Assembly (NCBI GenBank): GCA_016215705.1
Contig: JACRIR010000249.1
Span: 1-19,734, forward strand
DNA: 19,734 bases
Direction: 5' to 3'
From: Candidatus Poribacteria bacterium
GTDB taxonomy: Bacteria > Abyssobacteria > SURF-5
Shown here: positions 3,908 to 17,924 of the stretch, one piece after another
How the letters are laid out: each line of letters begins with the position of its first letter
Numbering within the stretch: position 1 is the stretch's first letter
Notes under the pieces: model-generated
Database searches by the model: none
What the model was told of the DNA's origin: nothing
What the model saw: the letters and a program-made list of their open reading frames with translations, nothing else
Position numbers and translations under genes: made by a program

Positions 3908-3939
3908 GGGAAAAGAATAGGAAATTGCGACAGGAATTC

Positions 3940-4752
3940 ATGATTTCGAACGTGAGTGGTATAGATGAAGCAACCGGATGCCGGGCGGACGGATTCTCTC
4001 TCATCGAGATGATCATTGCCATTGCGATCATGGCAATATTGTCGGCCGTCGTCGTTCCCGTGGTGTATAAAAGCATCGATGCCGAGAGGCATCAAGCCAC
4101 TTATAAAGAAATGGACGCAATAGTTGCCGCAATCGTGGGCAATGCCACCGAGGGAAACTATGGCTATCTGGGAGACATGGGCGGACTTCCGGCCAGTCTC
4201 ACCAACTTGAACACGAACCCTGGATCGACAACGCATTCATCGGGCACAAACGGCGTTCCAATGGGCTGGAACGGTCCTTACCTGAACATGGGAACGGACC
4301 CGACGGACTATCTGTCCGACGCATGGAGAATTCCGTATTCGTATAACAATGTCACAGGGAGAATTACCAGCCCGGGACTCAATGGAATCCTGGGCGACAG
4401 CGACGACATCGTGCTCCCGACCAACGCCGTGATCGCTTCCGGCTCGATTGCGGTAACAGTGACGACCAACAGTATTCAAAACCCCGGAAACATCGAGACG
4501 CTCGACGATACCACCGCAGATGTATGGGTCTCTTTCTCGAACAATGGGACTGAGAACGCGGTACAAGCAACCTACAATGCCTTGCTGTCATGTTTCACGG
4601 CGGGGCCTGTGCACAAAGGGTTGCACGCAATAACCGTGACAGGCGCCAACGGCCCGTCGCCGAGCCCCAATGATGATTTTCTTGGAAGGACCGGCGCGGC
4701 AAACCTGGTCGTGAGCCAGGGAGTCGCTTCAGTAACGGTGTACATTAACTAG
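3940..4752 (+). CDS. Type IV pilin-like pseudopilin with C-terminal extension
   Basis: This is a filament subunit processed by prepilin peptidase. From the ATG at 3940 the 270-residue product has an 18-residue leader ending in A-D-G. Cleavage at G18/F19 gives the mature start FSLIE with the conserved Glu at mature position 5 (E23). A hydrophobic helix of about 22 residues follows. The globular part contains GWNGPYLN, a D-A-W-R-x-P-Y motif and SPGLNG, as in the GspG family. About 90 extra residues follow, Thr/Val/Asn-rich and probably beta-structured, unlike standard GspG, which ends near the loop. I chose 3940 because AGGA lies at 3932-3935 and because the longer frame from 3796 would translate repetitive DNA and place the leader in an implausibly long basic segment. 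It probably belongs to the same pilus as the truncated pseudopilin at the left edge. Confidence 0.88.
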   Translation: MISNVSGIDEATGCRADGFSLIEMIIAIAIMAILSAVVVPVVYKSIDAERHQATYKEMDAIVAAIVGNATEGNYGYLGDMGGLPASLTNLNTNPGSTTHSSGTNGVPMGWNGPYLNMGTDPTDYLSDAWRIPYSYNNVTGRITSPGLNGILGDSDDIVLPTNAVIASGSIAVTVTTNSIQNPGNIETLDDTTADVWVSFSNNGTENAVQATYNALLSCFTAGPVHKGLHAITVTGANGPSPSPNDDFLGRTGAANLVVSQGVASVTVYIN

Positions 4753-7087: not shown

Positions 7088-7130
7088 CCTTTATTGGGGA
7101 CACCATGACGCATGGTGTCCTCAATAAAGG
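7088..7130. repeat. Palindromic repeat, variant GGGGACACCATG copy
   Basis: This hairpin has 20-bp arms (7088-7107, 7111-7130), one mismatch and a 3-nt loop. The core is GGGGACACCATG/CATGGTGTCCTC, so relative to the other copies an inner G-C pair has flipped to C-G on both arms. It sits between the PilO-like and PilP-like genes. An ATG at 7112 lies inside its right arm but is unlikely to be a true start. Confidence 0.92.
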
Positions 7131-7150
7131 GGCACAGGCGAATTCGACGC

Positions 7151-11828: not shown

Positions 11829-11869
11829 GAACGGCGCCTGTTTTGCGACAGTGACAGAAAAGTGGGCTG

Positions 11870-11910
11870 GAAAATTGGGGACACGATGCCGCATCGTGTC
11901 CCCAATTTTC
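11870..11910. repeat. Palindromic repeat, GGGGACACGATGC family, copy between convergent genes
   Basis: Perfect hairpin with 20-bp arms (11870-11889, 11891-11910) and a single C loop. The outer arm here is GAAAATT, different from copies 1 and 2 but still self-complementary. With AATTTTC after the GC-rich stem on each strand, it could act as a bidirectional terminator between the convergent MshN-like gene and the aldehyde oxidoreductase gene. A partial second right arm (CGTGTCCCCCATTTTC, 11913-11928) follows and touches the oxidoreductase stop codon. Confidence 0.95.
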
Positions 11911-11927
11911 TGCGTGTCCCCCATTTT

Positions 11928-13652: not shown

Positions 13653-13721
13653 AGGGGTCAGGTCTAAACAGTCGACAATAGGGGTTAAACCCCTGTTGTC
13701 GAATGTGTAGACCTGACCCCT
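13653..13721. repeat. 69-bp palindrome, AGGGGTCAGGTCT family, copy 1
   Basis: This is a long inverted repeat centred on 13687. The outer arms AGGGGTCAGGTCT / AGACCTGACCCCT are perfect. The middle (AAACAGTCGACAATA versus TTGTCGAATGTGT) has mismatches. The centre is GGGGTT-A-AACCCC. It fills most of the 91-bp gap between the FAD oxidoreductase and the aldehyde oxidoreductase genes. Copy 2 at 15858-15926 has exactly the same length. Confidence 0.93.
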
Positions 13722-13725
13722 GGCT

Positions 13726-15143: not shown

Positions 15144-15190
15144 CCCATAATTCGGTGAAACGATGCGGCATCGTGTCCCCGAATTATGGG
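15144..15190. repeat. Palindromic repeat, GGGGACACGATGC family, copy with decayed left arm
   Basis: Arms are 15144-15166 and 15168-15190 with a single G loop. The outer arm is CCCATAATTC. The right arm keeps the consensus core GCATCGTGTCCCC; the left arm has two mismatches (GGTGAAACGATGC instead of GGGGACACGATGC). It lies between the phosphoesterase and FAD oxidoreductase genes. Confidence 0.92.
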
Positions 15191-15310
15191 CCGCATGATG
15201 CCCCCGAAGAAACGCAAGCTCCCCCCGGATCAGCGAATTATGCGGATTCTCCTCTTCTTGTGTCCCGTTGGGAGAAAATGGCCGTCGGGTTTCGAATGCT
15301 ACTGTCTCAG

Positions 15311-15857: not shown

Positions 15858-15926
15858 AGGGGTCAGGTCTACACATTCGACAATGGGGGTGAAATCCCTG
15901 TTGTCGAATGTGTAGACCTGACCCCT
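15858..15926. repeat. 69-bp palindrome, AGGGGTCAGGTCT family, copy 2
   Basis: Inverted repeat centred on 15892. The arms AGGGGTCAGGTCTACACAT and TCGACAA are matched by TTGTCGA and ATGTGTAGACCTGACCCCT, so the arms pair without mismatch over about 26 bp; only the centre is imperfect. It ends one base before the glyQS stop codon (minus strand) and begins next to the ribosome-binding site of the phosphoesterase. Confidence 0.95.
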
Positions 15927-15927
15927 G

Positions 15928-17256
15928 TTAAATTGCGATACGTTTGAGCAACTCTCCCTTAAGCTCCGATATCTTCAGCCTTATCTGCTGCATCGAGTCA
16001 CGCTCGCGCAGCGTGACCGTTTCATCCTGAAGCGTCTGCGAATCGACCGTAATCCCGAACGGAGTTCCCGCTTCATCCTGTCGCCGGTAGCGGCGTCCGA
16101 CTGAGCCGCCGTCATCATAGAAGATTTTGAGATGTGGCCTGAGGTCGTCGGCAATTCTATGGGCGATGTCGGGCATTCCGTCGCGGTTGACCAGAGGCAG
16201 AATCGCCGCCTTGATAGGCGCTATCTTGGGCGACAACCTCAAAACCGCGCGCTCTTCTTTCTGGCCCGGGTTCTCGACTTCGTATGCGTCGACAAGGCAC
16301 GTGAGCAGAGTGCGGTCCACACCGGCAGAGGTCTCGATGATATATGGAACATAGCGTTGGTTGAGTTCCTGGTCGAAGTATGTCAGGTCTTTGCCGGAAT
16401 ACTCCTGGTGACGTGAAAGGTCGAAGTCGGTCCGGTTATGAATCCCCTCGAGCTCTTTCCACCCGAAGGGGTATTCATACTCGATGTCGAATGCGCGCCG
16501 CGCATAGTGGGCGAGTTCCTTCGGGCCATGCTCGTGAAAGCGGAGCTTCTCTTTCCTTATACCAAGCTGGCCATACCATTGCATGCGTTTCTCGCGCCAG
16601 TACTCGAACCATTCGTCATCGGTCCCGGGTTTGACGAAATACTGCATCTCCATCTGCTCGAACTCGCGCATGCGGAACACGAAGTTGCCGGGAGTTATCT
16701 CGTTTCGAAATGCTTTCCCGATCTGAGCGATGCCGAAGGGAACTTTCTGGCGCGACGGGCCGATCACATTCAGGAAATTCACATAAATGCCCTGCGCGGT
16801 CTCGGGACGGAGATAGACCAGCGCCGCTTCCTCTTCCAGCGGCCCGACATGGGTCTTGAACATCAGGTTAAACATCCGCGAGTCGGTCAACTCGCCGCCG
16901 CAGTCGGGGCATTTCTCGCTGTTGATTTCGTCGGCGCGGAACCGGTGTTTGCACTGCTTGCAGTCCACCAGCGGGTCGGTGAAACCTGCGACATGGCCCG
17001 AAGCCTCCCACACGCGCGGGTGCATGATGATGCTGGCGTCGAGTCCCTCGATGTCGTCGCGGTCCTGGGTCATCGTTTTCCACCAGAGACGCTTGATGTT
17101 ATTCTTCAGTTCGACCCCGAGCGGGCCGTAGTCCCAGCAACTGTTTATCCCACCGTATATGAGGCTGCTCGGGAAAATGATCCCTCGGCGTTTACACAGC
17201 GAGACTAGGTCTTCCATCCTCTTTTCGGCCTCGCTCACTTTCTTTTTGTTGGCCAT
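15928..17256 (-). CDS. glyQS: Glycine--tRNA ligase, alpha2 type
   Basis: Charges tRNA-Gly with glycine. The 442-residue class II synthetase is of the homodimeric (eukaryote/archaea/Thermus-like) type and not the alpha2-beta2 bacterial type. Motif 1 region: SCWDYGPLGVELKNNIK. Motif 2: YLRPETAQGIYVNF ... FRNEITPGNFVFRMREFEQME. Motif 3: ETSAGVDRTLL. A zinc-ribbon-like insertion C99-x2-C102 / C116-x2-C119 is common in this type. The C-terminal anticodon-binding domain (KAAILPLVNRDG ... DEAGTPFGITVD) is intact. GAGGAGG lies at 17271-17277, 14 nt from the ATG, a long spacer. A promoter and attenuator-like leader lie about 290-430 nt upstream. Confidence 0.96.
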   Translation of the reverse strand: MANKKKVSEAEKRMEDLVSLCKRRGIIFPSSLIYGGINSCWDYGPLGVELKNNIKRLWWKTMTQDRDDIEGLDASIIMHPRVWEASGHVAGFTDPLVDCKQCKHRFRADEINSEKCPDCGGELTDSRMFNLMFKTHVGPLEEEAALVYLRPETAQGIYVNFLNVIGPSRQKVPFGIAQIGKAFRNEITPGNFVFRMREFEQMEMQYFVKPGTDDEWFEYWREKRMQWYGQLGIRKEKLRFHEHGPKELAHYARRAFDIEYEYPFGWKELEGIHNRTDFDLSRHQEYSGKDLTYFDQELNQRYVPYIIETSAGVDRTLLTCLVDAYEVENPGQKEERAVLRLSPKIAPIKAAILPLVNRDGMPDIAHRIADDLRPHLKIFYDDGGSVGRRYRRQDEAGTPFGITVDSQTLQDETVTLRERDSMQQIRLKISELKGELLKRIAI

Positions 17257-17280: not shown

Positions 17281-17340
17281 TCAAAATGGGTTCGTGGTTT
17301 ATGGTTCATGGTTTATGGTTTGCGATTGTTGTCATTTTGA
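17281..17340. repeat. Heptad array flanked by an 8-bp inverted repeat
   Basis: Five heptads run 17290-17324 (GTTCGTG, GTTTATG, GTTCATG, GTTTATG, GTTTGCG) and continue as ATT, as the 2382-2451 array does. TCAAAATG (17281-17288) and CATTTTGA (17333-17340) flank it as a perfect inverted repeat. It lies 25-84 bp upstream of glyQS, between the attenuator and the start codon. Confidence 0.8.
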
Positions 17341-17513: not shown

Positions 17514-17545
17514 TCGTTCTTTTTCCCTTCCCTGGCCTAATAGCA

Positions 17546-17592
17546 AAAAGCCCTTTTCGCCAGATATCCGATAAGTTATGGCGAAAAGGGCG
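17546..17592 (-). terminator. Intrinsic terminator upstream of glyQS
   Basis: On the minus strand GCCCTTTTCGCCA (17592-17580) pairs perfectly with TGGCGAAAAGGGC (17563-17551) across a 16-nt loop, followed by TTTTT (17550-17546). It has a 13-bp stem and a T-tract only on this strand. It ends about 100 nt after the predicted start site of the promoter at 17654-17683, so it would end that transcript unless prevented. Confidence 0.85.
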
Positions 17593-17647
17593 AACCGAGC
17601 GGTTTCACCCTCGATGGGCCTAGCCTAACCCGGACCCTGTAGTCAAT
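17588..17647 (-). promoter_or_regulatory. T-box-like attenuator leader (candidate cis-regulatory RNA)
   Basis: The leader contains AGGGTGAAACCGC at 17612-17600 (minus strand), close to the T-box consensus AGGGTGGNACCGC. Two alternative folds are possible. In one, AGGGTG-a-AACC pairs with GGTT-CGCCCT (17612-17588, loop GCTC); this uses the 5' arm of the terminator and so is an antiterminator. In the other, ATCGAG-GGT pairs with ACC-g-CTCGGT (17616-17595, loop GAA), which leaves the terminator free. Against a classical T-box: only about 30 nt precede the motif, too few for Stem I, and the UGGN that would pair with tRNA NCCA reads UGAA. It could be a degenerate or divergent T-box, another attenuator, or a free-standing small RNA. 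Confidence 0.5.
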
Positions 17648-17653
17648 AACGCA

Positions 17654-17683
17654 TTATATTCCTTTGTGTTCTGATATGTCAAT
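17654..17683 (-). promoter_or_regulatory. Sigma70-type promoter, minus strand
   Basis: On the minus strand TTGACA (17683-17678) and TATAAT (17659-17654) are both perfect consensus hexamers with an 18-bp spacer. The predicted start is near 17647. The transcript would read the attenuator-like leader and then glyQS. Confidence 0.8.
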
Positions 17684-17812: not shown

Positions 17813-17924
17813 ATGCGCGCTGTTTGTTTGCGCCCATGCTGCGCTGTACCACTCACGTTCAGAATCTTGAATTCTTGTCGTGATTTTACAGAATATATTT
17901 GTGTAACTCCTTGTTCATGAATGG

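What the first reader, a model, noticed from the sequence alone, without database searches (positions are those of the whole stretch)
17546..17683. Attenuator-like leader with a T-box-like motif but no Stem I, upstream of glyQS
Seen: a perfect TTGACA/TATAAT promoter, then within about 100 nt two competing folds and a strong intrinsic terminator. The antiterminator uses the terminator's 5' arm; an alternative hairpin would release it. AGGGTGAAACCGC resembles the T-box consensus and a tRNA synthetase gene lies downstream. But there is no space for Stem I, and the residues that should pair with the tRNA acceptor end read UGAA, not UGGN. It may be a stripped-down or decayed T-box, a new riboswitch class, or a separate small RNA. 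The 290 nt to glyQS, largely repeats, leaves the link to the gene uncertain.
Basis: partly seen in the sequence, partly recalled or inferred. Interest (0 to 1): 0.72.

Follow-up and report, generated by a model that had tools for sequence, protein, structure and literature searches.

The report
Attenuator leader of glycyl-tRNA synthetase gene
Just upstream of the gene for the enzyme that loads glycine onto its tRNA, three genera of an uncultured bacterial family keep the same short RNA switch, in which a hairpin competes with a transcription stop signal; it resembles a piece of a T-box riboswitch but lacks the parts that let a T-box read tRNA, so what it senses is unknown.

Summary
On the minus strand a perfect TTGACA-18-TATAAT promoter is followed within ~105 nt by a hairpin (P2, 17611-17587) that shares the 5' arm of a 13-bp intrinsic terminator (17591-17550, then U5). 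The link to glyS is now firm: both other held genomes of the family (different genera, GlyRS 87-88% identical) carry the same leader, ending only 36 and 43 nt before the glyS start codon. P2's 5' arm has 10 of 12 positions invariant across three genera, although fourfold-degenerate codon sites are only 39-48% identical. The leader occurs once per genome, only at glyS, and was not found outside the family (383 other genomes; 81 other glyS upstream regions).

It is not a T-box: no Rfam match, no T-box anywhere in the three genomes, UGAA/UGAA/UGUA where UGGA is needed for tRNA-Gly, the "bulge" is paired, and helix A2 cannot form. 

Best reading: a lineage-specific glyS transcription attenuator that terminates by default, with P2 as an antiterminator stabilised by an unidentified factor. 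Ligand and direction of control are inferred. No pair changes on both sides, so structure support rests on conservation, not covariation.

The parts
17653..17682 (-). Promoter: TTGACA, 18-nt spacer with conserved CAGAA, TATAAT
   Evidence: 12/12 match; 19/30 columns invariant in three genera; perfect match of hexamers plus CAGAA once per genome, at glyS
17612..17646 (-). Variable 5' part of the leader from the predicted start; can form a weak hairpin 17637-17616, not significant
   Evidence: 6/41 columns invariant; fold not better than shuffles in any genus at 5%; transcription start inferred from the -10 box
17587..17611 (-). P2, antiterminator-like hairpin AGGGUGAAACC/GGUUCGCCCU carrying the T-box-like string
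   Evidence: 5' arm (17611-17600) 10/12 invariant
17594..17615 (-). Alternative hairpin that takes up the 5' arm of P2 when the terminator forms (this genome only; a different one exists in G002, none in G001)
17545..17591 (-). Intrinsic terminator: 13-bp stem and five U; its 5' arm is shared with P2
17257..17544 (-). 288 nt between terminator and glyS, partly low-complexity repeats, extra relative to G001 (36 nt) and G002 (43 nt)
15928..17256 (-). glyS, single-chain glycine--tRNA ligase, 442 aa, the regulated gene
   Evidence: NF003211 651.5 bits against cut-off 312, TIGR00389 518.7 bits against 243.3; orthologues in G001 and G002

Best explanation
A lineage-specific transcription attenuator of glyS. 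RNA polymerase starts at the perfect promoter about 105 nt before the end of the U-tract. As the leader emerges, P2 (AGGGUG..CGCCCU) can form first; it contains the GCCC that makes the base of the terminator stem. Unless P2 is held, the terminator's 3' arm displaces it, the 13-bp terminator forms and transcription stops before glyS. A factor that stabilises P2 would let polymerase through and raise GlyRS synthesis. Shown: the parts, their position at glyS in three genera, conservation of the shared arm, and mutual exclusion of the two folds in silico. Inferred: that termination is the default, that a trans-acting factor stabilises P2, and that it reports a lack of charged tRNA-Gly or of GlyRS. 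A protein (GlyRS itself or another RNA-binding protein) seems somewhat more likely than a small molecule, because the only conserved RNA besides the terminator is the P2 hairpin.
For: Same leader directly upstream of glyS in all three held genera of the family. In G001 and G002 only 36-43 nt separate terminator and start codon, so glyS transcripts must cross the terminator. P2 5' arm 10/12 invariant and shared arm 13/16 invariant, against 6/41 for the 5' region and 39-48% identity at fourfold sites. P2 appears in the minimum-energy fold of intermediate-length transcripts and the terminator at full length in all three; terminator state better by 6.2, 6.4 and 2.6 kcal/mol than the P2-forced state. 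P2 pairs 26/30 cells, slid controls 41-70%.
Against: No covariation: no P2 pair changes on both sides, three sequences only. P2 in G001 is weak (-6.7 kcal/mol, not above shuffles). Alternative hairpins that complete the OFF state are not shared. No ligand, protein or expression data. No similar leader at the other class II synthetase genes examined.
Confidence: 0.72

Rival explanations
1. A reduced T-box: P2 is a T-box antiterminator that still binds the acceptor end of uncharged tRNA-Gly without Stem I.
For: AGGGUGAAACCGC matches AGGGUGGNACCGC at all but one fixed position; N is A in all three, which would pair with U73 of tRNA-Gly; the gene is a tRNA synthetase; P2 overlaps the terminator as in T-boxes.
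Against: UGAA/UGAA/UGUA leaves C74 unpaired in all three; the bulge bases pair within P2 and helix A2 cannot form; no Stem I; no T-box in the three genomes; no Rfam match.
Confidence: 0.06
2. Leader-peptide attenuation: a ribosome stalling at Gly codons of a short peptide decides between P2 and the terminator.
For: In the window a UUG frame at 17646 reads L(M)TTGSGLG-stop with three Gly codons before P2.
Against: It starts at or next to the predicted transcript start with no ribosome-binding site, and neither relative has a corresponding Gly-rich frame.
Confidence: 0.05
3. Small-molecule riboswitch (for example glycine) with P2 and the 5' segment as aptamer.
For: Short conserved leader with expression platform; target gene in glycine use.
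Against: The 5' segment (26-36 nt) is not conserved in sequence (6/41 columns) and its fold is not above shuffles; P2 has no conserved unpaired core; no Rfam match.
Confidence: 0.1
4. Independent small RNA of about 100 nt with its own promoter and terminator that happens to precede glyS.
For: Promoter and terminator delimit a ~100-nt unit; 288 nt lie between it and glyS in the window.
Against: In G001 and G002 the unit ends 36-43 nt before glyS and stays with glyS while sequence upstream of the promoter is not conserved; much of the transcript is not conserved.
Confidence: 0.05

Closest known systems
T-box riboswitch (Rfam RF00230), glyQS type
   Same: Leader of a glycyl-tRNA synthetase gene; antiterminator hairpin that shares the terminator's 5' arm; string AGGGUG.AAC.G close to AGGGUGGNACCG.
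   Different: No Stem I, no UGGN, no open 7-nt bulge, no helix A2; below any Rfam score; the three genomes hold no T-box.
Protein-dependent antiterminator hairpins (RAT sites of BglG/LicT-type proteins; own knowledge)
   Same: A hairpin of about 30 nt overlapping the 5' arm of an intrinsic terminator in a short leader.
   Different: Sequence unrelated as far as recalled; no BglG-type gene at the locus; no protein shown to bind.
Leader-peptide attenuators of amino-acid and pheST operons (own knowledge)
   Same: Competing hairpins and a terminator within a short leader before a synthetase gene.
   Different: No conserved leader peptide in the three leaders.

Membership tests
T-box riboswitch | match to the Rfam covariance model | tested here: not met
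   none at gathering score or at E<=10; none in relatives' loci or in the three genomes
T-box riboswitch | Stem I with specifier loop upstream | tested here: not met
   26-36 nt between predicted start and P2, not conserved, no significant fold
[quoted passage not shown]
   UGAA, UGAA, UGUA against UCCA of tRNA-Gly: third base mismatched in all; UGGN position invariant in all known T-boxes per PMC7583486
T-box riboswitch | antiterminator with helices A1 and A2 around an open 7-nt bulge | tested here: not met
   bulge bases pair in the free fold; holding them open gives no A2 and about -2 kcal/mol
Transcription attenuator (antiterminator/terminator type) | intrinsic terminator between promoter and gene | tested here: met
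Transcription attenuator (antiterminator/terminator type) | mutually exclusive hairpin sharing a terminator arm, conserved in relatives | tested here: met
   conservation, not covariation
Transcription attenuator (antiterminator/terminator type) | read-through changes with a signal | not testable with these tools
   needs transcription assays
Leader-peptide attenuator | short translated frame rich in codons of the amino acid | tested here: not met
   UUG frame with Gly codons only in the window, no counterpart in G001 or G002
Protein-dependent antiterminator (RAT-like) | bound by a cognate antiterminator protein | not testable with these tools
   no binding data

The most novel reading that the evidence does not exclude
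A minimal RNA switch for a tRNA synthetase gene without Stem I, in a small uncultured phylum: P2 itself is the sensor, bound by GlyRS, by tRNA-Gly in an unknown way, or by another signal of glycine charging, with a mechanism unlike T-boxes and leader peptides.
Probability: 0.3. Interest if true: 0.7.

Novelty: new variant of a known kind. Interest (0 to 1): 0.48.

Why it matters
Synthetase genes controlled by transcription attenuation are mostly read by T-boxes or leader peptides. A conserved leader of about 105 nt that keeps the antiterminator/terminator switch but has neither a tRNA-reading stem, nor the CCA-pairing UGGN, nor a conserved leader peptide would be a separate solution to controlling glycyl-tRNA synthetase, small enough to be tested by one in-vitro transcription experiment. 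It also shows how a T-box-like string can arise largely from complementarity to a terminator arm.

Tried and rejected
Rfam at gathering score and at E<=10: only meaningless microRNA matches to the perfect inverted repeat. T-box search of the three genomes: none. Upstream regions of 81 glyS genes from other lineages: no AGGGTG-like or (C/G)CCCTTTT motif (some of these loci hold less than 450 nt upstream). Sequence model R1 over 386 genomes: only the three family members are convincing; three further weak matches (E 0.002-0.004, about the number expected in that many genomes) do not look like leaders, L171 lying inside an ORF. Other class II synthetase genes of the three genomes: no similar leader; thrS is preceded by a tRNA-Val gene and, in two genomes, a terminator-like hairpin. 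Conserved 5' hairpin: not above shuffles. Shared anti-antiterminator: the hairpins in G000 and G002 use different partners. GGC triplets of the 5' regions as a glycine specifier: not in a common loop position, dropped (by eye). Literature searches for glycyl-tRNA synthetase attenuators and new synthetase leaders gave nothing relevant, within open-licence papers only.

Full report
What is there. On the minus strand the window carries TTGACA (17682-17677), an 18-nt spacer and TATAAT (17658-17653), the only 12/12 promoter match among four candidates in 2 kb. About 35 nt after the expected start comes AGGGTGAAACCGCTCGGTTCGCCCTT (17611-17586), and overlapping it a terminator with 13-nt perfect arms (17591-17579 and 17562-17550) and TTTTT (17549-17545). 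The next gene on that strand is a single-chain glycine--tRNA ligase, 15928-17256 (NF003211, 651.5 bits, cut-off 312).

Link to the gene. The window is contig C195 of a 5.5-Mb genome. Only two other held genomes lie in its family, G001 and G002, in different genera; the other genomes returned as relatives share only the domain. Their GlyRS proteins are 87% and 88% identical. Directly upstream both have the same leader: promoter with the same CAGAA in the spacer, AGGGTGAAACCG (G002) or AGGGTGTAACTG (G001), a variable loop, TTTCGCCCTTTTCG or TTCCCCCTTTTCG, and the terminator. From U-tract to ATG there are 43 nt in G002 and 36 in G001, against 288 in the window, where the extra stretch is partly low-complexity repeats. 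In G001 and G002 transcription of glyS from this promoter, or from any upstream one, must cross the terminator. Sequence upstream of the promoter is not conserved, so the unit belongs to glyS.

Selection. Fourfold-degenerate sites of glyS are 39-48% identical between the genera, near saturation. In the leader the columns invariant in all three are: promoter 19/30, 5' region 6/41, P2 5' arm 10/12, P2 loop 0/5, shared arm 13/16, terminator loop 1/15, terminator 3' arm with U-tract 17/24. The 5' arm of P2 is not part of the terminator or the promoter, so its conservation needs its own reason. It is complementary to the terminator's 5' arm: 26 of 30 cells of a 10-pair helix are standard pairs, and sliding the partner by 1-3 columns in either direction lowers this to 41-70%. 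No pair changes on both sides, so this is conservation, not covariation. Inner pairs shift register between genera, with bulges at different places.

Switching. Folding growing prefixes gives P2 as part of the stable structure once its 3' arm is out (about 60 nt; 54 in G001), in all three leaders; when the terminator's 3' arm is complete the terminator displaces it, in G001 only partly. With P2 forced, the full leader is weaker than the terminator state by 6.2, 6.4 and 2.6 kcal/mol (G000, G002, G001). This is a statement about computed equilibrium folds; the default outcome in the cell is inferred. In the terminator state P2's 5' arm is taken up by an extra hairpin in G000 (17615-17594) and by a different one, with upstream sequence, in G002; G001 lacks one. 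That part is not a conserved feature. Statistical support sequence by sequence is modest: P2 alone beats shuffles in G000 and G002 but not G001, and sequestration of the CCCU arm is reached by 7-24% of shuffles.

Not a T-box. There is no Rfam match here even at E<=10. None of the three genomes has a T-box at E<=10, while the same search rings in B. subtilis and other controls. The two tRNA-Gly genes read here have U73, and one encodes CCA. A T-box would need UGGA; the leaders have UGAA, UGAA and UGUA, so C74 stays unpaired in all three. There is no Stem I and no conserved 5' structure. The resemblance of AGGGUG.AACCG to the T-box is best explained by complementarity to the terminator arm for the first six letters and by chance, or very distant ancestry, for the rest (inference).

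Leader peptide. The window has a UUG frame with three Gly codons at the transcript start, but without a ribosome-binding site and without counterpart in the other two leaders.

Distribution. A degenerate pattern and the sequence model each find exactly one convincing copy per genome, at glyS. The model finds nothing credible in 383 further genomes, although with stricter filters. Upstream regions of 81 glyS genes of other lineages lack the motif. The other class II synthetase genes examined in these genomes have no similar leader.

Verdict. A conserved, family-specific transcription attenuator leader of glyS, absent from Rfam, with a T-box-like string but without the features a T-box needs. 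The signal is unknown. The proposed mechanism is default termination with a factor that stabilises P2; the factor is inferred, with GlyRS or another RNA-binding protein reporting poor charging as the preferred guess. Limits: three sequences, no covariation, no transcript data, organism not named by the tools.

Noticed in passing
517-563, 2529-2575, 7088-7134, 11869-11915, 15146-15192: Five REP-like palindromes around GGGGACACGATGCNGCATCGTGTCCCC, dispersed through the window, mostly near gene ends.
   Followed up: no
13653-13722 and 15858-15927: Two 70-nt near-perfect palindromes (93% alike) AGGGGTCAGGTCTACACATTCGACAA..., flanking genes on either side; they look like elements moved by REP-associated transposases (own knowledge).
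   Followed up: no
2381-2447 and 17289-17320: 14-nt tandem units GGTTTATGGTTCAT in two distant intergenic places; the second lies in the extra stretch between the leader and glyS.
   Followed up: partly
3922-3964 and 17844-17886: A 43-nt inverted interspersed repeat, 84% complementary, one copy upstream of the glyS promoter.
   Followed up: no
17653-17682; L146, L147: The promoter spacer keeps CAGAA in three genera, and the full match with both perfect hexamers occurs once per genome, at glyS; it may be a further regulatory site.
   Followed up: partly
L155, L156, L157: thrS is preceded by a tRNA-Val (GAC) gene in all three genomes.
   Followed up: no
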